A stretch of DNA of 64,000 bases, from assembly GCA_903834145.1 (NCBI GenBank), contig CAILHY010000010.1:62001-126000 (forward strand), written 5' to 3'. The position numbers and the translations under genes are program-made. Source of the stretch: an uncultured Actinomycetes bacterium (lineage in GTDB: Bacteria > Actinomycetota > Actinomycetes > Nanopelagicales > Nanopelagicaceae). Of this stretch, positions 57 through 23,646 are shown piece by piece (positions within the stretch are counted from its first letter, which is position 1; each line of letters opens with the position of its first letter). Below the pieces are notes generated by a model. That model was given only the letters and a program-made list of their open reading frames with translations. It searched no databases and was not told the DNA's origin.

Positions 57-1175
57 TTAGGTCGCATCAGAGCGTGGAAATACCACCTCTTCGAGAATCA
101 GAATGACGGCCGCGGCAAGAGGAACTGCAAGAAGTGCGCCAACCAATCCCAGCAATGAAGAACCTAGTAGCGCGGCGATGATAGTGACCGCACCTGGCAC
201 TGATAGAGACTTCTTCATAATCTTGGGAGTAATCACGTAGTTTTCAATTTGAACGTAGAGCACGTAAGCCAAAAAGGCGATGAGTCCTGTAGGGATGGAT
301 TGTGTCAAAGCGATAATCGTGACAATCGAACAACCAATGAAATGTCCTATTAGCGGGATAAGGCCGCAAACAAGAATGATCATCGCGAGGGCGATCGGTG
401 AAGGAAGTCCAAGGAGAGATCCAAGAATTAGAACAAAAATACTGGCGAGGAACGAAATTGTGATTTGGCTGCCAACGAACGCGCCGATTCGCGCGATGAT
501 CGCGTAAGCAAGGCGTGAGACACGATCGCGTCGCGTAGCAGGTACTAGTCGCAACCCAAGTTCGGTCATAGTGGGAAGTGAGATGAGGAAGTAGAGAGTG
601 AGGACCAAGACGGTGAGCGATGAGAAAGTTCCAGAGAGAACGGTTTTACCGACTCCGACTACGCCACCAAAGGCAGAAACAATTAACGTTCCATCTTTTG
701 TTATGGCACGGAGTTTGACTTGAAGCGTGTCAACGATTCCGTAATGAGTGTTAAGGGAGGCGATCGTGGAATTATGTTTGAGATCGTTGAGCAGCGAAGG
801 TGCGCGATTAATAAGTTCAGCCCCCTGTGTGACAACAGGTGGAATTACAAGCCACGCGAATAGTCCGACGAAAATAATTACAAGCATGAATATGGTGGTT
901 ACCGCTTTACCTCTATTGAGTCCTCTTGATCGCAGCGCTTCCACTGCTGGATTGAGTCCCATCGCAAGAAAGAGCGCAATAATGATGAGAACAAATGTTT
1001 GGCTGGCGGCTGCAAGAGATCGCATGACTACGAGAGCTAGTAAGCCACCTGCTGTTGCAAGGAAGCCAAAATAGAAGGGGTGAGAATGATTGATGGGATC
1101 CCCTGGTAATCCGTAATCGACCGGGACCTCCTCCTTCTTGACTGTGCTCTTCTTGAATCGCTCTGAGAGTGCCAT
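57..1175 (-). CDS. AI-2E family transporter (PerM/UPF0118-like membrane protein)
   Basis: A polytopic membrane protein of 372 residues. It has a hydrophilic N-terminus with several lysines, a first pair of membrane helices, a long soluble stretch of about 100 residues, then five or six closely spaced helices ending in a short tail. This is the layout of the AI-2E transporter (PerM/TqsA) family, whose substrates are mostly unknown. The reading frame stays open to 1259, but the ATG at 1175 is preferred because TACACT lies exactly 6 nt upstream, as expected for a leaderless message, and the extra 28 residues look unlike the family. It is divergent from the gene at 1262. The substrate cannot be told from sequence. 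Confidence 0.85.
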   Translation of the reverse strand: MALSERFKKSTVKKEEVPVDYGLPGDPINHSHPFYFGFLATAGGLLALVVMRSLAAASQTFVLIIIALFLAMGLNPAVEALRSRGLNRGKAVTTIFMLVIIFVGLFAWLVIPPVVTQGAELINRAPSLLNDLKHNSTIASLNTHYGIVDTLQVKLRAITKDGTLIVSAFGGVVGVGKTVLSGTFSSLTVLVLTLYFLISLPTMTELGLRLVPATRRDRVSRLAYAIIARIGAFVGSQITISFLASIFVLILGSLLGLPSPIALAMIILVCGLIPLIGHFIGCSIVTIIALTQSIPTGLIAFLAYVLYVQIENYVITPKIMKKSLSVPGAVTIIAALLGSSLLGLVGALLAVPLAAAVILILEEVVFPRSDAT

Positions 1176-1261
1176 GTATTGAGTGTAAACGGTGGCCTCA
1201 ATCACCTGAGAGACGCCTCTCTGTTTACATTCGGTTAACCTGAGTAAGAGAGAATGCACTC

Positions 1262-2485
1262 ATGTCATTAGCGATAACGGGACTGGGCGAGGAAATCGCT
1301 GCTGTTGCCAGTTTGCCCTGGGATCGCCCGCTGGAGGAATGGCCCGAGGATCCATCCTTGGCCGAAAAACGGGGAATTTCTCGGCACGTTGTTCGCCTCG
1401 TGCGAGCACAGGATTCTCCCGATAGCGAGATCTACGCCGTAAAGGAGACCGTTTCCGAGTTTGCCAATCGTGAATACCGATTGCTGCGTGAACTTTCGCA
1501 TTTAGGGGCTCCTAGTGTGGATCCCATTGCCGTTGTAGAAGGAAGAAAAGATTCCAATGGTGAGGAGTTGCCGTGTGCGTTGGCAACACGATTCTTACCC
1601 TTTTCATTGCCCTATCGAGTTCTGCTATCGGGGGATGTTACCGCTCATGATGTGATGACCATGGCAAACGCGTTGGCATTGCTCTTGGTGCGATTGCATC
1701 TTCTCGGTTTTTGGTGGGGTGACTGTTCTCTTTCTAACACTCTCTTTAGAAGAGATGCCGAAGGATTTGCCGCGTACTTAGTGGATGCCGAAACAGGTGA
1801 ATTCCAAAAAACACTCAGTGATGGCCAACGCGAACATGATCTGGATATTGTTCATTTCAACGTTGCGGCAGAGTTAGAAGACTTGGCAATATCCGGCGTA
1901 CTTTATCCAGGCATGGATCCCATTCGTGCAAGTGATGGAGTCATTCGTCGTTATAAAAGATTATGGAAAGCACTCAAGGAACCTCAGGTACTTGATGCAT
2001 CTGATCGTCATGCAGTAGAGCGCGCTATGCGTGAACTTCATGATTTAGGTTTTGCCGTGGAGGAAGTTTCAGTTTCACTCGATGGCGATAGCCAAGCTCT
2101 CTCCTTCCAACCCAAACTTGTTTCTGCTGGCTACCACCAGCAACGTCTGCGCGAATTAACCGGACTCGAAACAGAAGAGCTTCAAGCTAAGCGACTTTTG
2201 GCATCTTTCGATCGCTATCGCGGTCGTGAAGTGAAACCGCGTGGACCTATCGAGGCAAGTGCGCAGCGATGGCTCCGCGAAGTATTTGAGCCGGTCACCG
2301 GCCTTGTTCCACATCCATTGCAAGGGCGTATTGAACCTGCACAGTTCTTTCACGAAGCACTTGAGCATCGTTGGTATCTAAGCGAGAAAGCGGGATATGA
2401 CGTGGGGTTAGATTTCGCGGCAAAGTCCTATATTTCTGAGATTTTGCCATTCCGAAGAGATTCGGGAGTTGAAATCAGGGCATGA
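1262..2485 (+). CDS. DUF4032 protein with kinase-like N-terminal domain
   Basis: A 407-residue soluble protein with an atypical (RIO/LPS-kinase-like) kinase fold at the N-terminus. K61 sits in a VAIK-like AVKE, E71 in a following helix, WGDCSLSN (D154, N159) forms the catalytic loop and VDAE (D175) the metal-binding DFG equivalent. The C-terminal part, after about residue 190, matches the actinobacterial DUF4032 region. The kinase residues are intact, so catalytic activity is plausible but the target is unknown. The ATG is preceded by GAGAAT with a 6-nt gap, which suggests a leaderless transcript. The next gene starts in or just after its stop codon, so they are probably cotranscribed. Confidence 0.82.
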   Translation: MSLAITGLGEEIAAVASLPWDRPLEEWPEDPSLAEKRGISRHVVRLVRAQDSPDSEIYAVKETVSEFANREYRLLRELSHLGAPSVDPIAVVEGRKDSNGEELPCALATRFLPFSLPYRVLLSGDVTAHDVMTMANALALLLVRLHLLGFWWGDCSLSNTLFRRDAEGFAAYLVDAETGEFQKTLSDGQREHDLDIVHFNVAAELEDLAISGVLYPGMDPIRASDGVIRRYKRLWKALKEPQVLDASDRHAVERAMRELHDLGFAVEEVSVSLDGDSQALSFQPKLVSAGYHQQRLRELTGLETEELQAKRLLASFDRYRGREVKPRGPIEASAQRWLREVFEPVTGLVPHPLQGRIEPAQFFHEALEHRWYLSEKAGYDVGLDFAAKSYISEILPFRRDSGVEIRA

Positions 2486-2492
2486 TAGGACA

Positions 2493-3362
2493 GTGACTCT
2501 CCCTCCTAACTTTGGCCGAGCTATCGATCTCAGCGGGCTAGGTAAAGCCCCCGCTGCAGTCTCCACAAATGCGGCAGTTGCTCAAGTGACGGCCGGTAAT
2601 ATCGCTTCGGAATTTCTCACCCTTTCACGCACGAAACCAGTCGTTGTAGCGTGTTGGTCTCCGCGCAGCCAAGAATCTATGGCGGTCGTAGATGTTCTGG
2701 CTAAGTTGGCGGCGATGGACGAAGAGCGCTGGGTATTGGGTTCGCTTAACGTTGATATCGAACCTGAAGTTGCTCAAGCACTTCAAGTGCGCACGGTTCC
2801 TTATGCAATTGCCCTCGTGAACGAACAGATCGTGCCGCTCTTTGAACAAAGTTATCCCGAGGCACAAATTCGTATGGTCATCGACAAAGTTCTCTCACTG
2901 GCCTTTGAACAAGGTATCGGCGGAACAGGTGAACCGGCAGAAGCGCCGATGGAACCTGAAGAGGAGGAAGCTTTGAACGCGCTGGAGGCTGGCGAGTTCT
3001 TAGTTGCCGAGGCGGCATACAAGAAATTGTTGTCACGCAAACCGCAAGACACTTTCGCCAAACTTGGATTGGCCCAAACTCAACTCCTTATTCGAACGGC
3101 AGGTTTGGACGCTGATGTAATCACGGCAGCAGCCGATGCCGATCCACAGAATGTAGAACTTCAGATGAAGTGCGCTGATCTTGAGATTTCACGAGGCGAT
3201 GTGGAGTTAGCTTTCGCACGATTGCTTAAATGTGTGCGCGGATTTAAAGGGCCAGAACAAACACTCGCAAAGAATCATCTCATCGAAATCTTTTCACTTG
3301 TGGATCCATCCGATCCTCGTTTGGTAAAGGCGCGATCGGCGCTGGCAAGCGCTTTGTACTAA
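2493..3362 (+). CDS. YbbN/CnoX-like thioredoxin-TPR protein
   Basis: A 289-residue cytosolic protein. The N-terminal half has a thioredoxin fold (TKPVVVACWSPRSQES) in which the CXXC active site is missing: only the first cysteine remains. The second half, after an acidic linker (EPEEEEALNALEAGE), has tetratricopeptide-type helices. This is the arrangement of YbbN/CnoX, a holdase co-chaperone rather than an oxidoreductase. The GTG at 2493 follows an AGGA; a TTG at 2469 overlapping the upstream gene is an alternative start. The stop codon overlaps the start of the MFS gene by one base (TAATG), so the three genes form an operon. Confidence 0.8.
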   Translation: MTLPPNFGRAIDLSGLGKAPAAVSTNAAVAQVTAGNIASEFLTLSRTKPVVVACWSPRSQESMAVVDVLAKLAAMDEERWVLGSLNVDIEPEVAQALQVRTVPYAIALVNEQIVPLFEQSYPEAQIRMVIDKVLSLAFEQGIGGTGEPAEAPMEPEEEEALNALEAGEFLVAEAAYKKLLSRKPQDTFAKLGLAQTQLLIRTAGLDADVITAAADADPQNVELQMKCADLEISRGDVELAFARLLKCVRGFKGPEQTLAKNHLIEIFSLVDPSDPRLVKARSALASALY

Positions 3363-4540
3363 TGAACACACGTTCCAGACGAGCATTGGGAGCGGTCTTC
3401 TTCTTTTACGCAGTTGCACTTATTTCCTGGATCCCTCGTTATCCCGAAGTCAAACACAATCTCCACATCAGCAATGGAGAGTTCGGAACATTATTAAGTC
3501 TTGGGGCTCTAGGTTCTCTTGTTAGTTTGCTCATGGTGGGCCACCTTGTCCATCGTTACGGCAGCAGAAAGGCGATCACCGCCAGCGCGACAATTCTCTT
3601 TCTATCAATTGGCTACGTTGTCCACGTCACTAACTCGTTTCTCTTCTTTATCTGCATTGTTTTAATTGGCGCCGGTTCCTCCGGAGTTCATATTGCTGTT
3701 AATAGCCAGGGTTTCTACGAACAAGAACGAACCGGTGAAAATCTCATTCCTCGCTTGCATGGGTTTTGGTCGGCTGGTGCTCTCAGCACGGCAATTCTTT
3801 CGGGATTTCTTACTGGGAGAGTTTCTTTGGTAGCGCACGTGGATACTTTGTGCGTAATTGCCTACCTTTTGGTTCTTTACTTCCTGAAAGTAATAGGTCC
3901 CGACGCATTGCCTGGCGTCATCGATGAGGAGACGAGTTCCCCACTTAAAAGTTTCTTTTCTTCCTTTTCCATTGATTGGAATCTCACTTGGGCAATCACT
4001 TTTGCCACGATGGTTGAATTTTCCATTGGCGACTGGGGCGCGATTTTTAGTAAAGAGGAGCTCCATATGAGCGCGGGAGTGGCAACCATTCCTTACATCA
4101 TTTGTGCCTTGGCAATGATTGGCGGCCGCCTCAATGTTCATCGCATCACCAAATACATCGGGATAGGTGATCTCGTCAAGCGATGCGTAATATTTGGCGG
4201 AATCGGCTTCATGGTTCTCATGAGCTTTGGAAAGTTTGTATCAAAAACTCAACCACAGGTGGGATTTCTCATCTTTCTCGTCGGGGTATTCATCGGGGCA
4301 CTCGGGGGTTCATTCCTTGCACCAACTATTTTGGATGCAGCCAATAAGCGATCGAAATTTCCGGGAAGTGTTGTCATAGCGCAAATCGGCGCGGTCAATA
4401 CCATTCTAGTTTTGATGAGTAAAACGGTTATTGCCTGGACGGCTCAACTCACAAGTATTTCTGTAGCATTAATAATTCCATCTTTCGGATTGATGGCGGT
4501 CGCATTCTCTGCGCGAGCAATTAAAGAGGCAAACGCTTAA
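3362..4540 (+). CDS. Major facilitator superfamily transporter
   Basis: A 392-residue integral membrane protein with about 12 predicted helices. The MFS loop-2/3 motif reads GHLVHRYGSRKA around residues 60-72. The overall look resembles the FucP/YbjJ-type group of MFS carriers, which move sugars or other small molecules by proton coupling or efflux. The substrate is not evident. It is translationally coupled to the upstream YbbN-like gene through a TAATG overlap. It meets the reverse-strand glgB tail to tail with a 4-nt overlap, leaving no room for a separate terminator. Confidence 0.85.
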   Translation: MNTRSRRALGAVFFFYAVALISWIPRYPEVKHNLHISNGEFGTLLSLGALGSLVSLLMVGHLVHRYGSRKAITASATILFLSIGYVVHVTNSFLFFICIVLIGAGSSGVHIAVNSQGFYEQERTGENLIPRLHGFWSAGALSTAILSGFLTGRVSLVAHVDTLCVIAYLLVLYFLKVIGPDALPGVIDEETSSPLKSFFSSFSIDWNLTWAITFATMVEFSIGDWGAIFSKEELHMSAGVATIPYIICALAMIGGRLNVHRITKYIGIGDLVKRCVIFGGIGFMVLMSFGKFVSKTQPQVGFLIFLVGVFIGALGGSFLAPTILDAANKRSKFPGSVVIAQIGAVNTILVLMSKTVIAWTAQLTSISVALIIPSFGLMAVAFSARAIKEANA

Positions 4541-6408
4541 ATTTGTTGCAGCCAGATCGTTGCTAGCGGTGGAACCCGTAAAGATACGCGATTTGCATGT
4601 GTTGCTTCGGAAACTATTTCACCGTTATTAATGCCTGTTCCACCCAACGCCATCTCATCAGTGTTGATGACCTCGCGCCAAACACCTGAAAGCGGCATTG
4701 GCAGTGTGTAATGTTCATGAGGAGTCGGCGAAAAATTCGTGATGCATACCAAAGGCCTACGCGACTCATCCCATCGAGCGAAGGCCAAAATATTACTTGC
4801 GGCATCGGCCCCAACTAGCCAAGTGAATCCTTCAGGAGATGTGTCCTTCTCCCACAACGCTTGGATGTCTCTGTATTGGGTGTTGAGCTTCGCGATTGTT
4901 TGAGAAATCCCTTTATGTTCACCGTATTGAGTGAGATCCCATTGGAGCCCTTGGCCATCACTCCACTCTTCATTTTGTCCGAATTCGCAGCCCATGAAGA
5001 GCAATTTCTTACCTGGATGCGCCCACATGAATCCATAGAGGGCTCGTAGCGTTGCCAACTTCTGCCAGCGATCTCCAGGAAACTTATTTACAAGGGCACC
5101 TTTGCCATGGACTACTTCATCATGGGAGATGGGCAGTACGTAATTTTCACTCCACGCATAAAGAATCGAGAAAGTAATTTCGTTATGGTGATGGACGCGA
5201 TGAATCGGCTCGCGCTGTAAATACGAGAGAGTGTCATGCATCCATCCCATATTCCATTTGAAGCCAAACCCGAGTCCATCTGAATCTGTTCCGCGCGTGA
5301 CTCCCGACCACGCCGTAGATTCCTCGGCGATCATCATGATTCCGGGATGCGTACGGTAAGCAGTAGCCGTTGCTTCCTTCAGAAGTTGCACTGCTTCAAG
5401 ATTTTCTCGGCCTCCATTTTTGTTGGGAAGCCATTCGCCCTCTTTGCGCGAATAATCCAAATAAAGCATCGATGCCACGGCATCTACTCTCAAACCATCA
5501 ATATGAAATTCTGTAAGCCAGTACAAAGCGCTGGCAACAAGAAAATTGCGGACCTCGTTGCGGCCAAAATTAAAGATCAGAGTTCCCCAGTCAGGATGTT
5601 CACCTAGGCGTGGGTCGGCATGTTCAAATAGTGCGGTTCCATCAAATTTCGCTAACGCCCATTCGTCTTTCGGAAAATGTGCTGGAACCCAATCAAGGAT
5701 CACTCCGATGTGTGCTTTATGCAATTGATCTACAAGAAATCTAAATTCGTCGGGAGTACCAAAACGTGATGTTGGAGCAAAGAAAGAGGTGACTTGGTAG
5801 CCCCATGAAGGTCCATATGGGTGCTCCATGACAGGGAGGAATTCAACGTGGGTAAACCCATGATCTTTGATGTATGCAATAAGTTCTGTCGCTAATTCGA
5901 TATAACTTAAACCAATACGCCAAGATCCAAGATGAACTTCATATGTCGAAACCGCACTTTTCCAGGATTGAAAATTTGTACGTTGCTCCATCCAAACTTG
6001 ATCACTCCAAGCAAAGAAACTTTCGTTAACAACGGATGCCGTAAGAGGAGGGATTTCAGTTTCGCGGGCTAGTGGATCTGCGTGGTCAACCCAGCGCCCA
6101 TCATTTTGATGAATGGCAAATTTATAACGTTCACCCCCGGCAACATCAGGAATGAATATCTCCCAGATGCCACTACTTCCGATTCGAACCATCTTGTGCG
6201 TTGCACGATCCCAGTAATTGAAGTCACAGACCAGACTGACTGCTTGGGCGTTTGGTGCCCACACGGAAAATGCTGTTCCGATGGCTTGTTCAGCTTCATC
6301 ACGTACGACATGAGCGCCTAGGGCTTGCCAAAGTTTCTCGTGTCGCCCTTCGCCAATCAGAAAAAGATCGAGTTCACCCAATGTGGAATGTGGATTAAGA
6401 AAACTCAT
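4537..6408 (-). CDS. glgB: 1,4-alpha-glucan branching enzyme
   Basis: GlgB transfers alpha-1,4 segments to form alpha-1,6 branches in cytosolic glycogen-like glucan. At 623 residues it has one N-terminal CBM48 domain (about 40-130) and a GH13 barrel. The catalytic triad is visible as D309 in DGLRVDA, E362 in AEES and D430 in SHDE, and the C-terminal beta domain is complete. It is about 100 residues shorter than the E. coli enzyme because the extra N1 domain is absent, which is common. Its ATG shares one base with the stop codon of glgE (TAATG), so expression is coupled to glgE and aceE upstream. Confidence 0.97.
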   Translation of the reverse strand: MSFLNPHSTLGELDLFLIGEGRHEKLWQALGAHVVRDEAEQAIGTAFSVWAPNAQAVSLVCDFNYWDRATHKMVRIGSSGIWEIFIPDVAGGERYKFAIHQNDGRWVDHADPLARETEIPPLTASVVNESFFAWSDQVWMEQRTNFQSWKSAVSTYEVHLGSWRIGLSYIELATELIAYIKDHGFTHVEFLPVMEHPYGPSWGYQVTSFFAPTSRFGTPDEFRFLVDQLHKAHIGVILDWVPAHFPKDEWALAKFDGTALFEHADPRLGEHPDWGTLIFNFGRNEVRNFLVASALYWLTEFHIDGLRVDAVASMLYLDYSRKEGEWLPNKNGGRENLEAVQLLKEATATAYRTHPGIMMIAEESTAWSGVTRGTDSDGLGFGFKWNMGWMHDTLSYLQREPIHRVHHHNEITFSILYAWSENYVLPISHDEVVHGKGALVNKFPGDRWQKLATLRALYGFMWAHPGKKLLFMGCEFGQNEEWSDGQGLQWDLTQYGEHKGISQTIAKLNTQYRDIQALWEKDTSPEGFTWLVGADAASNILAFARWDESRRPLVCITNFSPTPHEHYTLPMPLSGVWREVINTDEMALGGTGINNGEIVSEATHANRVSLRVPPLATIWLQQI

Positions 6409-8132
6409 TACGCCAATTTCACATGAGCTATGTGGGCAACTTTTCCCGAAGGACGTGAAGGATCTAGGCGGATGAATGTATGTGAAGACCAGGAAAACGT
6501 TGATCCATCAAGTAAATCTGTAGCAGTGAAAGAATCTTCAGAGATGCCGAGTGCTCCCATATCCCAGTGCACGGTGGTTTCTTGAGCGTATGTGGGATCA
6601 AGGTTGACGACAACAAGAATGAGATCCGAGTCTGTCTTCTTTGAATAGGCAACGATGGCATCAGAGCCGGTGCTATGAAAAACGAGATTGCGCAAGCGTT
6701 GAAGTGCTACGTGATCGCGACGGATGCCATTGAGTTGAGTGATGAAAGGGGCAAGAGTTATTCCTTTCTTAGCGGCGCCATCCCAATCGCGGATTCGAAT
6801 CTGGTACTTCTCGGAGTCTGCATATTCTTCGCCGCCTTCGTGCAAGGCGCGGTGTTCGTACAGTTCGTAACCGGCATACATTCCCCACGAGGGAGAGAGA
6901 GTGGAAGCAAGCACCGCTCGCAAGGCGAACATCGCAGGATTTCCACTTTGAAGATGCATCGGCAAAATATCGGGAGTATTGACCCAGAAATTTGGGCGAA
7001 AGAATGCGCTGGTTTCTCGAGAAACCTCATTGCCATAGGAAACTAATTCTTGTTTGCTAGTGCGCCACGTGAAGTATGTATAAGACTGATGAAAGCCTGC
7101 CTTACCAAGAGCGTGCATCATCGCAGGTTTTGTGAAAGCTTCAGCGAGAAAGATAATTTCGGGAGATTCTTTGTAGATAATCGCCAAGATGTCTTGCCAA
7201 AAATGAACCGGTTTCGTGTGCGGATTATCAACACGGAAAAGCGTTACCCCTTTGCTTATCCAAAGTCGGATGATTCGCAAGATTTCATTGAGAAGCCCTT
7301 GGTAGTCATTATCAAAATTAAGTGGATAGATATCTTGATATTTTTTAGGCGGGTTTTCTGCGTAGGCAATAGATCCATCTGCACGTTTGGAGAACCACTC
7401 AACATGCGTCTTTACCCAAGGGTGATTGGGGGAGGTTTGCAACGCCAGGTCCATGGCAATTTCCAAGCCATTCTTTTTCGCTACCTTCACGAAAGATTCG
7501 AAATCATCCATGGTTCCAAGATCTGGATTAATCGCATCGTGCCCACCCGCGTTGCCGCCAATTGCCCATGGAACACCAGGGTCAGAAGCGCCGGCAGTCA
7601 GCGAATTATTGGGTCCCTTACGATGATCAATTCCGATGGGATGCACAGGGGGAAGGTAGAGAACATCAAAGCCCATCGCCGCAACAGCGGGTAACCGTTT
7701 TGCCGCAGTGGCAAATGTTCCGGCTGATTTTTCAGTGGCTCCCTCACTGCGTGGGAAGAATTCATACCAAGAGCCAACTAGTGCCCTGTCGCGATCGGCT
7801 CGAATGGGGAATCGATCCGATTCGGTGAGAAGTTTGCGCGCAGGAGTGAGATCAAAAGCTTCGATTGAGAAAGAGAAATCTCCGGATATTGGGGGAGTGA
7901 GAACTGTTTCAAAGCGATCAGTACCGGGCCAAACTTCCTTCATGGCGTTGCGTTGAATTTCTTTGCCAGCGAAATCCCGCAACACCGCATCAGCGCCAAA
8001 AGGATCATGGCCTTCGCGAATTACTGTGGCTGAGATTGTTATTGCTTCATGAGGTATTGCCTTTACAGCAACAAATTCTCCCCCAAAATAAATACTGGGG
8101 GAGATATCTGTGATTGGGATTCGACCGATCAA
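6408..8132 (-). CDS. glgE: Alpha-1,4-glucan:maltose-1-phosphate maltosyltransferase
   Basis: GlgE elongates alpha-glucan from maltose 1-phosphate, a pathway typical of actinobacteria. The protein has an N-terminal Ig-like domain and then a GH13_3 barrel. The nucleophile is D302 (FRVDNPHTK), the general acid E331 (LAEAF) and the third acid D388 (NTPD). At 574 residues it is shorter than the roughly 660-700 residues usual for the family, with a reduced N-terminal segment. The start is a TTG at 8132 preceded by GAGGG, and it overlaps the aceE stop as TTGA. With glgB it makes a glucan-synthesis pair. No treS or pep2 is present in this window. Confidence 0.95.
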
Positions 8133-19359: not shown

Positions 19360-19711
19360 GAAGAGTCGCCCGGATCACCGCGTTACGAAAGTACCGAGGA
19401 AAGTCCGGACTCCAGAGAGCAAGGTGGTGGGTAACGCCCACCCGGAGCAATCCGCGGGATCAGTGCCACAGAAAATAAACCGCTCATGCAAATGAGTAAG
19501 GGTGAAACGGTGGTGTAAGAGACCACCAGCATTTACGGCAACGTACATGGCTAGGTAAACCCCACTTGGAGCAAGACCAGACAGATAGCGCTTGAGAACT
19601 GCTCGTTCGAGCTATTGGGTAGGTCGCTTGATCACGTAAGTAATTGCGTGACTAGATGGATGGTGATCCGTTCGCAAGAACGACAGGATCCGGCTTATAG
19701 GGCGACTCTTC
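19360..19711 (+). ncRNA. rnpB: RNase P RNA
   Basis: The catalytic RNA of RNase P, bacterial type A layout. The 5' arm of P1 (GAAGAGTCGCC, from 19360) pairs with GGCGACTCTTC ending at 19711. Between them are the conserved core elements GAGGAAAGTCCGGACTCC, ACAGAAA, AGGGTGAAACGGTGG and the 3' GGCTTATAGGGCGACTC segment. The gene ends 3 bp before the stop codon of the convergent OYE gene. A 26-nt stretch at its 3' end recurs at 22873-22898. Confidence 0.97.
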
Positions 19712-19714
19712 TTT
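19689..19714 (+). repeat. Left copy of a 26-nt direct repeat, inside the rnpB 3' end (candidate attL)
   Basis: These bases run from TCCGGCTTATAG through the 3' arm of P1 and the following T-run. They match 22873-22898 at 24 of 26 positions in direct orientation. Direct repeats of an RNA gene's 3' end flanking a short accessory segment are typical of site-specific integration. The assignment as an attachment site is inference. Confidence 0.65.
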
Positions 19715-20784
19715 TAGTTCAGTGTTGGATAATCTGTGTAGCCCTTTTCATTGCCACCATAAAACCTTGAACCATCTGTGGCGTTATACGGTCCATCAGT
19801 CTTAAGTCTTTCAACTAAATCTGGATTCGAAATGAAGAGTTGACCAAGTGAAACCAAATCAGCAGCGCCAGATTCGATGTACTCCAAATCCGACTTTCCC
19901 TTAACCTTTTCGCCAACAAAAGTGTTTACGATCAAAGTATTAGGCCACCACGTACGAACCTTCGTTAGAAGTCCATTTTGCATTGGGTTCTCCATGAAGT
20001 GGAGGTAAGCCAGATCTAGGCTTGCCAACTCTTTGATGAGTGCTTCATATGTAGCTTCAAAACCTTCTTCAACTATTCCATTGAAGGGGTTTGCAGGAGA
20101 GATTCTGATGCCAACTTTTGATGAGCCAATCTTTAATGAGACTGCCTTCGCAACTTCTACAGCAAACTCGATTCTTCCGGCCACTGAGCCACCCCACTTA
20201 TCAGTGCGGAGATTTACATTTGTAGATATAAATTGGTGGACTAAGTAGCCGTTAGCACCATGGATTTCAACGCCATCAAAGCCAGCCGCAATCGCATTTT
20301 CCGCAGCGCTAGCGAAATCGTTAATGGTCTGCAGAATGTCCGCTTCAGTCATTTCCTTAGGAGTTTCAAATGCCTGTGGGCCTTTTGCGGTGTAAACCTG
20401 GCCTTCGGCGATGACTGCTGAAGGAGCAACGGGCACAAGTCCTTCTGGAAGCAGATCCTTATGACCGATACGACCTGTGTGCATTAGTTGAGCAAATATG
20501 ACGCCACCTTTTGCGTGGACGGCGCTTGTTACCTTCTTCCATGATTCAACTTGTTCTGCCGAATGCAATCCCGGAGTACTTGGATAGCCCTGTCCAACGA
20601 TGGAAGGCTGTGTACCCTCAGTGATGATTAGTCCTGCCGAAACTCGTTGTGCGTAGTAAGTGGCTATCAAATCTGTGGCAAGGGCACCAGGATTTCCGGC
20701 ACGGCTACGTGTCATGGGCGCCATCACAATGCGGTTCTGAAGATGTTTTCCTGCAAGGTCGTATGAACTAAAAGCTTTTTCCAT
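19714..20784 (-). CDS. Old Yellow Enzyme family alkene reductase
   Basis: An FMN-dependent ene-reductase of 356 residues that would reduce activated C=C bonds of electrophiles or nitro compounds with NAD(P)H. It has the N-terminal FMN motif RIVMAPMTRSRA, the substrate-binding HGANGYL (His/Asn pair and following Tyr), and QLMHTGRIGH. The physiological substrate is unknown. It is the second gene after the MarR regulator (6 nt gap). This is a common arrangement for electrophile-responsive reductases. It lies inside the segment flanked by the rnpB repeats. Confidence 0.93.
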   Translation of the reverse strand: MEKAFSSYDLAGKHLQNRIVMAPMTRSRAGNPGALATDLIATYYAQRVSAGLIITEGTQPSIVGQGYPSTPGLHSAEQVESWKKVTSAVHAKGGVIFAQLMHTGRIGHKDLLPEGLVPVAPSAVIAEGQVYTAKGPQAFETPKEMTEADILQTINDFASAAENAIAAGFDGVEIHGANGYLVHQFISTNVNLRTDKWGGSVAGRIEFAVEVAKAVSLKIGSSKVGIRISPANPFNGIVEEGFEATYEALIKELASLDLAYLHFMENPMQNGLLTKVRTWWPNTLIVNTFVGEKVKGKSDLEYIESGAADLVSLGQLFISNPDLVERLKTDGPYNATDGSRFYGGNEKGYTDYPTLN

Positions 20785-20790
20785 GGTTTT

Positions 20791-21285
20791 TTAACTTGCT
20801 TTCTGAGTTGTGTTTCGCTGATTAACGGGGTGGTGTTCTTCTAGGTGAGTAGAGATCACACTAGAAATTTCGATAAGTGCCTGCATTTGAGATTTCGTTA
20901 AAATGTCACTGAAACAATGGTTAATTTCAAGGGATTGAAGAGGAACTGCTTCAATAATTCGATTTTTACCTACTGCGGTTAGGCCCACATCGAAACATCG
21001 AGAATCTGAATTGCTCTTGGTTTTCTTAAGTAGCCCACTTTCATGCATGCGAGTCACTTGATGCGACATTCTGCTGATCTCCCACCCGAGCTGGGCAGCC
21101 AAAGTATTTACATTCAGAGCCGCTTCGTTTGACTCATAAATAGCGAGAAGGACAACATATTCAGCGGCACTTAATCCCGAGTGATTCATAATCTGGCGAC
21201 CCAAGTGGGGAATCAATTGTTGGCCAATTTTATGGAAGGCACGCCAAGCCTTGGAATCAAGCTCCTTCATTCCTTTTTGCGCCAT
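20791..21285 (-). CDS. MarR family transcriptional regulator
   Basis: A 164-residue winged-helix repressor type protein. The recognition region LAAQLGWEISRMSHQVTRMHESGLL is followed by the wing KTKSNSDSRCFDVGLTAVG. These are the hallmarks of MarR proteins, which release DNA on binding small electrophiles or phenolics. It probably controls itself and the downstream OYE gene. A 16-bp interrupted palindrome overlaps the TTGACA -35 box of its own promoter at 21306-21321. A cysteine in the wing (SRCF) might be redox-sensitive, but that is speculation. Confidence 0.92.
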   Translation of the reverse strand: MAQKGMKELDSKAWRAFHKIGQQLIPHLGRQIMNHSGLSAAEYVVLLAIYESNEAALNVNTLAAQLGWEISRMSHQVTRMHESGLLKKTKSNSDSRCFDVGLTAVGKNRIIEAVPLQSLEINHCFSDILTKSQMQALIEISSVISTHLEEHHPVNQRNTTQKAS

Positions 21286-21305
21286 GGATGAATTAGATCA
21301 GATAT

Positions 21306-21321
21306 ACTTGATATGTCAAGT
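21306..21321. promoter_or_regulatory. Interrupted palindrome, probable MarR operator
   Basis: ACTTGA-TATG-TCAAGT is a 6-4-6 inverted repeat located 20 bp upstream of the marR start. On the reverse strand it contains TTGACA, which fits a -35 box with TAATTC or TGATCT as possible -10. The same interval would also affect the divergent small gene at 21339. The core TTGA-N4-TCAA recurs upstream of yceI. Confidence 0.7.
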
Positions 21322-21338
21322 AAAAAATATCTGAAGAA

Positions 21339-21626
21339 ATGAGCTTCCTAATGAATAGTTACATGGTGGTTGCCACCTTTAAAGAAGGCGTTACACAAGA
21401 GGAAATTCGAGCACTCATTCCAGCAGAGCAGGTGCAGGCCAAATTATTAGAAGAGCAAGGTTTGTTGGGGAGCATCAAAGTTGCGATGCCTAAGCGCACG
21501 GTGTTTCTTGAAGCATTCGGTCAAGACGATCAAAGAGTCTTAGAAACCATCCTTTCCCTCCCGCTAGCCGCTCTTTGGGATATCGAAGTCCTTCCCACGA
21601 CGCCACCAGCAGGATCCAGCGTATAA
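21339..21626 (+). CDS. Small protein, possible muconolactone-isomerase-like ferredoxin-fold
   Basis: A 95-residue soluble protein divergent from marR. The strand-helix-helix-strand pattern and the ending with FLEAFGQDD, then LPLAALWDIEVLPTTPP, resemble dimeric alpha/beta-barrel proteins such as muconolactone isomerase-like or YciI-like families. No catalytic residue can be assigned. The first ATG has only a weak GAAG; the ATG at 21351 is an alternative start. Its position suggests control by the MarR protein. Confidence 0.6.
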   Translation: MSFLMNSYMVVATFKEGVTQEEIRALIPAEQVQAKLLEEQGLLGSIKVAMPKRTVFLEAFGQDDQRVLETILSLPLAALWDIEVLPTTPPAGSSV

Positions 21627-21722
21627 AAATTCCTAAAAGTATTTGCAAGCATTTACGGGACAAAGTACGGGATATCCGCGCGCTGCAAAGAATTCTGCGC
21701 AGCAACGCAATAATATTTTCTT

Positions 21723-22298
21723 ATGTCTAATGCGCGAGTATCTGCCCACCTCAAGAAGTTCAGCCCCGACCAGAAGAAGATTCTTACGGATTTGCGCAAT
21801 CACATAGCTTCTAAACTTCCAAAATCAGAACAAATAATTAAATACGGTATACCAACATTTCTGATTGAGGATGTACCAGTAATTGGCTTTGATGGTTACA
21901 AGTCTCACAACAGCGTATTTCCTTATAGCGGGTCATTTAACTCTCGGCTTAAAAAGGAGTTAGAGCAATATGTGCAAACAAAAGGATCCATTCACTTTGA
22001 GGGTGGAAAAAGTATTCCGAAGCTGCTCATCAATCAAATTCTTACTGAAAGAATTCAACAGATTAATGATGCGTATCCTAAGAAGACAGGTGAGTACCTA
22101 GAGTTCTACACAAATGGAGTATTGAAGGCCAAAGGTAAATACAAGGCGGGCAACATCCATGGCGACTGGAAATGGTTTCGGAAAACTGGGGTAATCATGC
22201 GTTCAGGTAGTTTTAAAAATGGTGTACAAGTTGGAATATGGATTACTTATGATGCGAAGGGAAAAGTCTACAAAAAAGCTATTAAAACGGAGTCGTAA
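21723..22298 (+). CDS. DUF1801 domain protein with C-terminal MORN-type repeats
   Basis: A 191-residue protein with two parts. Residues 1-115 match the DUF1801 (YdhG-like) fold: KYGIPTF, VIGFDGYKSHNSVFP and IHFEGGKSIP. Residues about 122-190 contain repeats of the type YxNGxLKAKGKYKxGxxHGxW and FKNGVQVGxWITYDxKGK. These are MORN-2/YwqK-like repeats usually found in separate proteins. TAATAT ends 6 nt before the ATG. Function unknown. The base composition is AT-rich compared with flanking metabolic genes, which fits its place in the putative rnpB island. Confidence 0.78.
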   Translation: MSNARVSAHLKKFSPDQKKILTDLRNHIASKLPKSEQIIKYGIPTFLIEDVPVIGFDGYKSHNSVFPYSGSFNSRLKKELEQYVQTKGSIHFEGGKSIPKLLINQILTERIQQINDAYPKKTGEYLEFYTNGVLKAKGKYKAGNIHGDWKWFRKTGVIMRSGSFKNGVQVGIWITYDAKGKVYKKAIKTES

Positions 22299-22306
22299 AG
22301 AGATAC

Positions 22307-22735
22307 TTAGTTCAAGAATGCGATGATTGCACCAGCGACAGTTAAGTTGAGCGCATCGTTAGTGGTTTCAATGAGCCAGACCTTGATATTTTCTCCACCG
22401 AAGAGTCGATGCGAAAGGGATGCGAATGCCGCAATTCCCACACCAAGCGCGAAGCCAATTCCTGCTCCGTCAGTGATACCGATATCCGTACCAGCGTGCT
22501 GGAGTGAATTGATGATCAGACCCAGAGTAAGAGTCTGAATAAGAACACCGAGGATTGTGCCGCCGAAGAGGAGCACTGGCTTGTTCTGGTTTGAATTTAA
22601 CTGGCCAGTTGCAATACCACGTTCTTTCATCCAGATTGGATAGAAGGTCTTAGGCCCAAACCATATTGCGCCACTTACGAATGAGAATCCGAAAGCCACG
22701 AGAATGCCTATGAAGTTAAATCCTGTGAATGTCAT
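22307..22735 (-). CDS. DUF1761 family membrane protein
   Basis: A 142-residue protein with four predicted membrane helices and the DUF1761 hallmark AIWFGPKTFYPIWMKERG after the first helix. The family is of unknown function. TATTAT lies 7 nt before the ATG, suggesting a leaderless start. It is convergent with the DUF1801-MORN gene (8 bp between stops) and is the last gene before the right rnpB-like repeat. Confidence 0.82.
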   Translation of the reverse strand: MTFTGFNFIGILVAFGFSFVSGAIWFGPKTFYPIWMKERGIATGQLNSNQNKPVLLFGGTILGVLIQTLTLGLIINSLQHAGTDIGITDGAGIGFALGVGIAAFASLSHRLFGGENIKVWLIETTNDALNLTVAGAIIAFLN

Positions 22736-22872
22736 GGCGGAAATAATACCAGAACTCTGCCTCTGACCCTTGGAATGACCTTTCTACATCTTGGTTATCT
22801 CTGTAATTGTTCGGGGCAATATTGACCGCAGTTGTTATCTTTGAACGCGAGCGCGTGCTCAACAATGTCGTC

Positions 22873-22898
22873 TCCGGCTCATAGGGCGCCTCTTCTTT
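22873..22898 (+). repeat. Right copy of the rnpB 3'-end repeat (candidate attR)
   Basis: This matches rnpB 19689-19714 with two substitutions in 26 nt (T to C at position 8, A to C at position 17). Sequence just upstream of 22871 shows no further rnpB similarity, so this is a short isolated fragment, not a duplicated gene. It is followed by A/T-rich sequence and the DUF2200 promoter. Confidence 0.65.
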
Positions 22899-22930: not shown

Positions 22931-23290
22931 ATGACAGAAAAGCTGGAAAAGTTGTTCAACATGCCTGTCAGTGGCGTCTATCAGGCTTATCTGAAGAAAG
23001 TTGAACGCAAGGGTGCGAGTGAATCAGATCTCGTGAAGGTAATCGGCTGGCTCACGGGGTTTGATTCGAAAACTTTGAAAAAGCATGTCAAAGACGGGAC
23101 ATCTCTTAAGAATTTCTTCAAGAGTGCAAAGTTGAATCCCAAGGCAAAACTGATCACAGGAACAATATGTGGTGTCAAGATACAAGAAATCGAGGACCCT
23201 TTGATGCTGAAGATCCGATATCTGGACAAATTGGTTGATGAACTTGCCAAAGGTCGCCCGATGGAAAAGATCTTGCGCTCCGAAATATAG
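22931..23290 (+). CDS. DUF2200 family protein
   Basis: A 119-residue basic protein matching DUF2200: VYQAYLKKVERKGASESDLVKVIGWLTG, followed by FFKSAKLNPKAKLITG and a C-terminal KIRYLDKLVDELAKGRPMEKIL. The family is small, widespread and uncharacterised. TACGAT ends 6 nt upstream of the ATG. It begins just after the right rnpB-like repeat, so it probably belongs to the original chromosome rather than the inserted segment. Confidence 0.83.
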   Translation: MTEKLEKLFNMPVSGVYQAYLKKVERKGASESDLVKVIGWLTGFDSKTLKKHVKDGTSLKNFFKSAKLNPKAKLITGTICGVKIQEIEDPLMLKIRYLDKLVDELAKGRPMEKILRSEI

Positions 23291-23313
23291 GGCATTTCTT
23301 TTATACTTCAATT

Positions 23314-23646
23314 ATGAGCAAGAAGTTCATAATTTTTGTCATTGATGACCTAAGCGGATCTGGCACACCTGAAGAGATGGTTGCTATTGATGCATTCAAT
23401 GATCAATTGCGCGCAAACGACCAATGGATTTTTGCAGGGGGTTTAGCGGCACCATCTCGTTCCACGGTCATCGACAATCGGGGGAGTGCAAATATCGAAA
23501 CTGGTCAGCCACTATTTCCGAATCCCGAGCAGTTCAGTGGATTCTGGTTGATACAAGTGCCCGATCTTGAGACCGCTCGCAACCTTGCCTTTGAAGGATC
23601 CAAGGCCTGCAACCGTAAGGTTGAGTTGCGACCTCTACTTGGTTGA
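23314..23646 (+). CDS. YCII-related domain protein
   Basis: A 110-residue ferredoxin-like protein of the YCII/DGPF group: FIIFVIDDLSG, then a middle segment with WIFAGGL, and a C-terminal GFWLIQVPDLETARNLAFEGSKACNRKVELRPLL. Members are small dimeric proteins of uncertain enzymatic function, some linked to sigma-70 (SigJ-like) operons; no sigma gene is present here. TATACT ends 6 nt upstream of the ATG, one of the clearest leaderless promoters in the window. Confidence 0.82.
   Translation: MSKKFIIFVIDDLSGSGTPEEMVAIDAFNDQLRANDQWIFAGGLAAPSRSTVIDNRGSANIETGQPLFPNPEQFSGFWLIQVPDLETARNLAFEGSKACNRKVELRPLLG

What the first reader, a model, noticed from the sequence alone, without database searches (positions are those of the whole stretch)
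19689..22898. A 3.2-kb accessory segment flanked by direct repeats of the rnpB 3' end
Seen: 24 of 26 bases at 22873-22898 match the RNase P RNA 3' end (19689-19714) in direct orientation, and the similarity stops abruptly on the upstream side. Between the copies lie genes typical of accessory DNA: OYE reductase, MarR, a small ferredoxin-fold protein, a DUF1801-MORN fusion and a DUF1761 protein. Known: integrases often use the 3' end of tRNA or tmRNA genes and leave such a displaced end. Inference: rnpB acted as the integration site, a rarely noted target, and the integrase has since been lost. The displaced original end would be the right copy.
Basis: partly seen in the sequence, partly recalled or inferred. 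Interest (0 to 1): 0.75.

Follow-up and report, generated by a model that had tools for sequence, protein, structure and literature searches.

The report
Gene-cassette array at RNase P RNA gene
In the tiny, abundant freshwater bacteria of the family Nanopelagicaceae, small mobile pieces of DNA are slotted one after another behind the gene for the RNase P RNA, each bounded by a copy of that gene's last 26 bases, so this essential RNA gene serves as a docking site through which these bacteria exchange genes.

Summary
The repeat is real (24/26 bases; chance expectation 0). It is not one old insertion but a piece of a family-wide cassette array. In 201 Nanopelagicaceae genomes the rnpB 3' end recurs downstream of rnpB: 87 genomes hold at least 2 copies at up to 1 mismatch, and 15 of 17 single-contig genomes at up to 5. 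The repeats bound units of 0.16-8 kb (median 0.8 kb, mostly one gene). Units move. A 4.1-kb unit is 99.95% identical between two genera whose rnpB genes are 80% identical, with identity starting and stopping at the repeats. Within one genus it is a precise insertion between rnpB and the next unit. A tyrosine integrase subfamily lies beside the repeat in 6 of 296 genomes; relatives in other Actinomycetes families (about 30% identical) also lie beside rnpB 3' ends. The window's genome lacks this integrase, so most cassettes are probably non-autonomous and moved in trans (inferred). The window's segment is a composite of at least two decayed cassettes; a DUF2200 cassette follows it, with a degenerate third repeat at 23279. 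This works like tandem CIME accretion or the 'additive' islands known at tRNA genes. I found no published report of rnpB as a target.

The parts
19362..19713 (+). rnpB, class A RNase P RNA; its 3' end is the attachment site
   Evidence: RF00010, 310 bits
19689..19714 (+). left repeat = rnpB 3' end (3' strand of helix P1, 12 of 12 pairs with 5' strand)
19715..22872 (.). composite cassette, at least two fused ancestral cassettes
   Evidence: parts recur separately in relatives
19714..20784 (-). OYE-type NADH:flavin oxidoreductase; stop codon abuts the repeat
   Evidence: PF00724 E 2e-74; alone in G283
20791..21285 (-). MarR regulator
   Evidence: PF12802/PF01047; paired with the next gene in G005, G118, G119
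21339..21626 (+). muconolactone-isomerase-like ferredoxin-fold protein
   Evidence: PF02426 E 6e-4, below cut-off; homologue pair ends at a repeat in G119 (L353:5181)
21627..21692 (.). presumed decayed internal cassette boundary (no repeat left to recognise)
   Evidence: the 90% identical block of same-genus G054 begins exactly at a repeat (L349:9461) at the place matching 21692
21723..22298 (+). DUF1801 + MORN_2 protein
   Evidence: PF08818, PF07661
22307..22735 (-). DUF1761 membrane protein
   Evidence: PF08570; recurs in many family genomes
22810..22872 (+). recurrent cassette right-end sequence
   Evidence: 76% to L350 63-158; AACAATGTCGTCT in others
22873..22898 (+). right repeat, 2 mismatches to the left copy
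22931..23290 (+). DUF2200; second cassette of the array
   Evidence: PF09966; homologue is a 481-bp stand-alone cassette in L056
23279..23305 (+). degenerate third repeat
   Evidence: PSSM 7.4 against shuffle maximum 5.5; weak alone, but at the expected place
23314..23646 (+). YCII-like gene that closes the array in many relatives
   Evidence: PF03795, below cut-off; homologues in 10 of 17 single-contig genomes near the array end

Best explanation
The 3' end of rnpB is a chromosomal attachment site (attB) for a subfamily of tyrosine integrases found in Actinomycetes. Integration of a circle whose attP equals the last ~26 bases of rnpB keeps the ribozyme intact, because the arriving copy restores helix P1, and leaves a repeat at the far end of the insert. 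In Nanopelagicaceae repeated integration has built arrays of small cassettes, mostly one gene without recombinase. Rare autonomous elements with an integrase and HTH excisionase-like genes share the same site and probably move the cassettes in trans or by accretion. The window holds a decayed array: a composite OYE/MarR + DUF1801/DUF1761 unit, then a DUF2200 unit. Shown: repeats, array, transfer of repeat-bounded units, precise insertion, integrase beside the site. Inferred: catalysis by that integrase, trans mobilisation, and the route between cells.
For: Repeat arrays in 87 of 201 genomes, reversed control pattern 0. Cassette 99.95% identical over 4127 bp between genera with rnpB 79.9% identical, limits at the repeats. 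Precise 4104-bp insertion in G018 against G001. Integrase family beside the repeat, six of seven places within ~320 bp of a recognised copy. Relatives in two other families and two viral-collection contigs beside rnpB 3' ends; perfect 26-bp repeats at rnpB in G494 and G501. Tree: 14 of 15 rnpB-type integrases in one group, support 90/84.
Against: The window's own genome and all 17 single-contig genomes lack this integrase. No excised circle was seen. G017 has only a doubtful right repeat. A second, unrelated integrase (L177) also sits at a repeat, so this subfamily may not be the only enzyme. The window's third repeat is weak.
Confidence: 0.82

Rival explanations
1. Tandem accretion of whole integrative elements followed by deletion: each cassette is the shrunken remnant (CIME) of an autonomous element, and cassettes do not move alone.
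For: Autonomous elements exist at the same site; arrays decay; CIME accretion is described (PMC5704250).
Against: Single repeat-bounded cassettes of 0.18-5.5 kb without integrase are near-identical in distant genomes with different neighbours, so integrase-free units do travel.
Confidence: 0.3
2. Homologous recombination in flanking conserved DNA (rnpB on one side, host genes on the other) swaps the island content; the repeats are by-products.
For: Some units carry longer rnpB 3' parts or a whole second rnpB.
Against: Identity begins and ends in a 26-bp repeat while rnpB next to it stays 20% divergent; internal cassettes are exchanged (G111/G105); integrases sit at the site.
Confidence: 0.08
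3. XerC/XerD move the cassettes, as for pdif modules.
For: XerC- and XerD-sized recombinases are the only strong tyrosine recombinases common to the single-contig genomes.
Against: By eye the repeat lacks the two 11-bp arms of a dif site and is the end of an RNA gene; a dedicated integrase lies beside it in some genomes. The family's own dif was not searched for.
Confidence: 0.05
4. The right copy is a small-RNA terminator or a chance similarity.
For: Hairpins are enriched just after repeats (21% with z below -2 against 5%).
Against: The 26-mer itself folds no better than shuffles (z -1.5); hairpins lie outside it and differ between cassettes; repeats bound transferred units; chance expectation 0.
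Confidence: 0.01

Closest known systems
Additive flexible genomic islands with tRNA-fragment direct repeats (Ca. Actinomarinales, PMC7771536)
   Same: Small gene cassettes inserted at an RNA gene, with a direct repeat of part of that gene at the cassette end; exchange between genera
   Different: There the targets are tRNA genes; here the target is rnpB, arrays are longer and an integrase at the site is identified
CIMEs and tandem accretion of ICE/IME (review PMC5704250)
   Same: Units with att sites at both ends but no integrase, in tandem at one attachment site with elements that do carry one
   Different: Units here are mostly single genes, and integrase-free units are near-identical in distant genomes
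Integrons and integrase-less attC clusters (CALIN; own knowledge)
   Same: Array of mostly one-gene cassettes separated by a common short recombination sequence, genes mostly in one direction, integrase often absent
   Different: No folded attC-like site and no integron integrase above its cut-off; the repeat is the end of an essential RNA gene
Actinomycete integrative and conjugative elements, AICEs (PMC3218068)
   Same: rnpB-type integrases outside the family sit in AICE-looking elements (L322: FtsK-like translocase, probable replication protein, excisionase-like and integrase genes) with 26-bp perfect repeats
   Different: Published AICEs with tyrosine integrases use tRNA genes except the pSLS sub-family, whose site is not named in the passages read; the acI elements carry no transfer genes that I could recognise
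pdif modules (XerCD; own knowledge)
   Same: Small gene modules between short recombination sites
   Different: Site unlike dif; a dedicated integrase is found

Membership tests
Site-specific integrative element at an RNA gene 3' end | Direct repeat of the gene's 3' end at both element borders | tested here: met
   26 bp
Site-specific integrative element at an RNA gene 3' end | Filled and empty sites in relatives | tested here: met
   G018 against G001, 4104 bp, (not for the window's own cassette)
Site-specific integrative element at an RNA gene 3' end | Integrase gene beside the att site | tested here: met
   In the rare autonomous elements; not in the window
CIME (cis-mobilizable element) | attL and attR kept, integration and transfer genes absent | tested here: met
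   Window cassette and most cassettes
CIME (cis-mobilizable element) | Derived by deletion from an autonomous element and moved in cis | tested here: inconclusive
   No remnants of such an element recognised; integrase-free units occur alone in distant genomes
Integron / CALIN | Integron integrase IntI | tested here: not met
   TIGR02249 at 45-63 bits against cut-off 265
Integron / CALIN | attC sites that fold into hairpins as single strands | tested here: not met
   Repeat and flanks fold no better than shuffles (z -1.5 to 1.5)
AICE | FtsK/SpoIIIE-type Tra, Rep and integrase | tested here: not met
   Not found in the acI elements by Pfam; apparently present in the f17 element by reading ORFs, not domain-scanned
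pdif module (XerCD) | 28-bp dif-like site with XerC and XerD arms | not tested
   Judged by eye only; the family's dif was not located
Tyrosine recombinase | Catalytic R-K-H-R-H-Y | tested here: met
   Invariant R196, K235, H302, R305, H328, Y338 in alignment A1

The most novel reading that the evidence does not exclude
A new integron-like platform: rnpB serves as a universal docking site, an integrase supplied in trans from rare elements loads and swaps single-gene cassettes, and cassettes carry terminator-like hairpins at their left end that stop rnpB read-through. It would be a main gene-exchange route of some of the most abundant freshwater bacteria.
Probability: 0.35. Interest if true: 0.88.

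Novelty: new variant of a known kind. Interest (0 to 1): 0.74.

Why it matters
acI (Nanopelagicaceae) bacteria are very abundant in lakes, have streamlined genomes and are thought poor in mobile elements. A cassette array anchored at an essential ribozyme gene gives them a defined, searchable place of gene exchange. It also offers a reason why so many assemblies break at rnpB, adds rnpB to the RNA genes used as integration sites, and provides an integrase subfamily with a predicted site that can be tested directly and might serve as a tool for delivering DNA to actinobacteria.

Tried and rejected
Exact repeat in IMG/VR viral contigs: none. rnpB region against annotated phages: only distant rnpB-like matches. 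DUF2200 as a conserved neighbour in the genus: absent from the other 20 genomes, so it is accessory, not a border gene. Serine recombinases: 1 of 19 genomes. Non-Xer integrases of single-contig genomes: several beside tRNA genes, none with the rnpB motif. Defence as main cargo: of 8 proteins from autonomous elements only the type III restriction-modification pair in L326 hits PADLOC. pSLS as a named rnpB element: integrase searches gave no close plasmid. Papers on rnpB as an integration site: none found in the held library; subscription papers are not covered. Chance repeat and terminator readings rejected.

Full report
OBSERVATION. Rfam places class A RNase P RNA at 19362-19713. Its last 26 bases recur at 22873-22898 with two differences; no other match lies in the 64-kb window and 100 shuffles gave none.

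THE REPEAT IS A FAMILY-WIDE FEATURE. The window lies in a 1.75-Mb MAG. A scan of named genomes for the 24-mer returned mostly acI / Nanopelagicaceae records. In 201 family genomes the pattern (up to 1 mismatch) occurs 321 times; 134 genomes have it, 87 at least twice, 58 at least three times (rnpB's own copy included), and the reversed control pattern was never found in the table. With up to 5 mismatches 15 of 17 single-contig genomes have two or more copies behind rnpB in direct orientation. Seventy-seven non-rnpB copies define a sharp unit, T-CCGGCTTATAGGGCGACTCTTCT-TT, with no conservation just 5' of it.

CASSETTES. Ninety repeat-to-repeat units were cut out. They are 163-7963 bp long, median 820; 42 have one ORF of at least 80 aa and 15 have none. 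Of 170 such ORFs 123 lie on the rnpB strand (65 of 95 protein clusters, p = 0.0004). Content, judged from the sequences by eye: acetyltransferases, SnoaL-like, MNT/HepT and RelE-type toxin-antitoxin pairs, DoxX-like, MarR, DUF305-like, NlpC/P60-like, abhydrolase and others.

MOVEMENT. G018 and G061 belong to different genera. Their rnpB genes are 79.9% identical and nothing else upstream aligns in the stretch held, yet the first cassette is 99.95% identical over 4127 bp and the second 97%; identity starts and ends at the repeats. G051/G079 share a 5.5-kb cassette at 98% with rnpB at 80.7%. G111/G105 share a 1138-bp cassette at 99.7% between different neighbours. In the same genus as G018, G001 is 96% identical up to rnpB and 92% colinear beyond, and lacks exactly the 4104-bp cassette.

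THE ENZYME. The single-contig genomes share only two strong tyrosine recombinases each, of XerC/XerD size and far from rnpB, and serine recombinases are nearly absent. Searching all fetched loci revealed a different integrase of about 375 aa lying against the repeat. Examples: L158 (rnpB 5062-5421 -, integrase 303-1424 -, right repeat 245), L116 (rnpB 7451-7800 -, integrase 916-2058 -, right repeat 891), L144/L149 and L180. A profile of five (A1) finds seven places in six of 296 family genomes; six of the seven have a recognised repeat within about 320 bp after the integrase stop. The seventh, G017, has the integrase behind rnpB but only a doubtful right repeat. Pfam gives Phage_integrase plus Phage_int_SAM_3. 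Autonomous elements also carry HTH_17 (excisionase-like) genes and cargo such as DUF4379/CapR-like proteins or type III restriction-modification.

INDEPENDENT SUPPORT FOR THE SITE. In 395 genomes across the class the only relatives at E below 1e-60 outside the family are four, and all lie next to a rnpB 3'-end motif. In G494 and G501 rnpB itself is adjacent, with perfect 26-bp repeats about 10.6-18.6 kb apart in tandem. The G501 element looks like an AICE from its ORFs (by reading, not by a domain scan). Two viral-collection contigs show the same motif beside the integrase. In a 54-row tree 14 of the 15 rnpB-type integrases fall into one group (90/84) with one unlabelled long branch; the acI group is 100/100, and L177 is a second, separate origin.

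THE WINDOW AGAIN. The window's unit has no single counterpart. OYE alone recurs in G283. MarR plus the isomerase-like gene recurs in G005 with a DoxX-like gene in place of OYE, and in G119 it ends at a repeat. DUF1801-MORN plus DUF1761 is 90% identical in G054, where it begins exactly at a repeat. So 19715-22872 is at least two fused cassettes whose internal repeat has decayed. DUF2200 is a stand-alone cassette in G166 (L056), so a second cassette follows the right copy, ending at a degenerate repeat at 23279-23305 that is weak alone but in the expected place. The YCII-like gene after it lies near the array end in many relatives. The window's genome has no integrase of this type.

HOW IT MOST LIKELY WORKS. 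attB is the 3' strand of P1 and its approach. An incoming circle with the same sequence recombines there, rnpB is regenerated (P1 12/12 pairs on the left copy, 11/12 on the right), and the repeat now ends the cassette. The next arrival pushes older cassettes away, and old repeats decay. Many cassettes begin with a strong hairpin just after the repeat (21% with z below -2, control 5%), which may replace the terminator of rnpB; this is inference. Some units end in a longer rnpB 3' part, or even a full second rnpB (G015, 84% identical), pointing to variants that carry more of rnpB.

KNOWN AND NEW. It works like CIME accretion (PMC5704250) and like additive islands at tRNA genes in Ca. Actinomarinales (PMC7771536). 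It resembles integrons in layout but fails both integron tests. I found no report of rnpB as target in the open library; AICE integrases of the pSLS sub-family are noted as not using tRNA genes (PMC3218068), with no site named in the passages read. New variant of a known kind.

LIMITS. Most genomes are MAGs and contigs break at rnpB, so array counts are lower bounds. Catalysis, trans mobilisation and the way between cells are not shown. Contigs with the repeat in bins of other phyla are probably misbinned, but this was not tested.

Noticed in passing
L321 1-19901 with L332; L322 8700-19500 with L333 (genomes G494, G501, another family of the class): AICE-looking elements of 10-18 kb in tandem at rnpB, with perfect 26-bp repeats of the rnpB 3' end and an integrase beside each repeat.
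   Followed up: partly
L082:9456-9530 (381-bp cassette), L079:8906-8977: tRNA-like genes inside ORF-less cassettes (ARAGORN calls Gly with anticodon ACC in L082).
   Followed up: no
L050 1178-1529 and 9350-9705 (G015); L041 8971-9220: Second rnpB copies behind rnpB: a full one 84% identical 8 kb away, and copies in which only the 3' half is recognisable, at the ends of cassettes.
   Followed up: partly
L089 (SCGC AAA028-A23) 867-6601: Repeats in both orientations around one rnpB in a single-cell genome: inversion between repeats or an amplification chimera.
   Followed up: no
L177 3652-4913: A second, unrelated tyrosine integrase (apparently frameshifted, kin to tRNA-Leu integrases) next to the same repeat, in a bin labelled Pseudobdellovibrionaceae.
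   Followed up: partly
L154/L188, L183, L184, L186, L190, L098: The repeat in contigs of bins labelled Phycisphaerae, Chloroflexi, Dehalococcoidia, Ilumatobacteraceae; probably misbinned acI contigs, else transfer across phyla.
   Followed up: no
L050, L069, L073, L074, L078, L079, L082, L085 (first ~180 bp of cassettes): A shared ~180-bp cassette leader beginning with a strong hairpin (GGTGGGCGCAG...CTGCGCTCACC), once occurring as a whole 180-bp cassette (L050, L089).
   Followed up: partly
many family genomes, e.g. G003:C2 and C3, G019:C17, G025:C5: Metagenome contigs end at or just behind rnpB very often, as expected at a variable repeat array.
   Followed up: no
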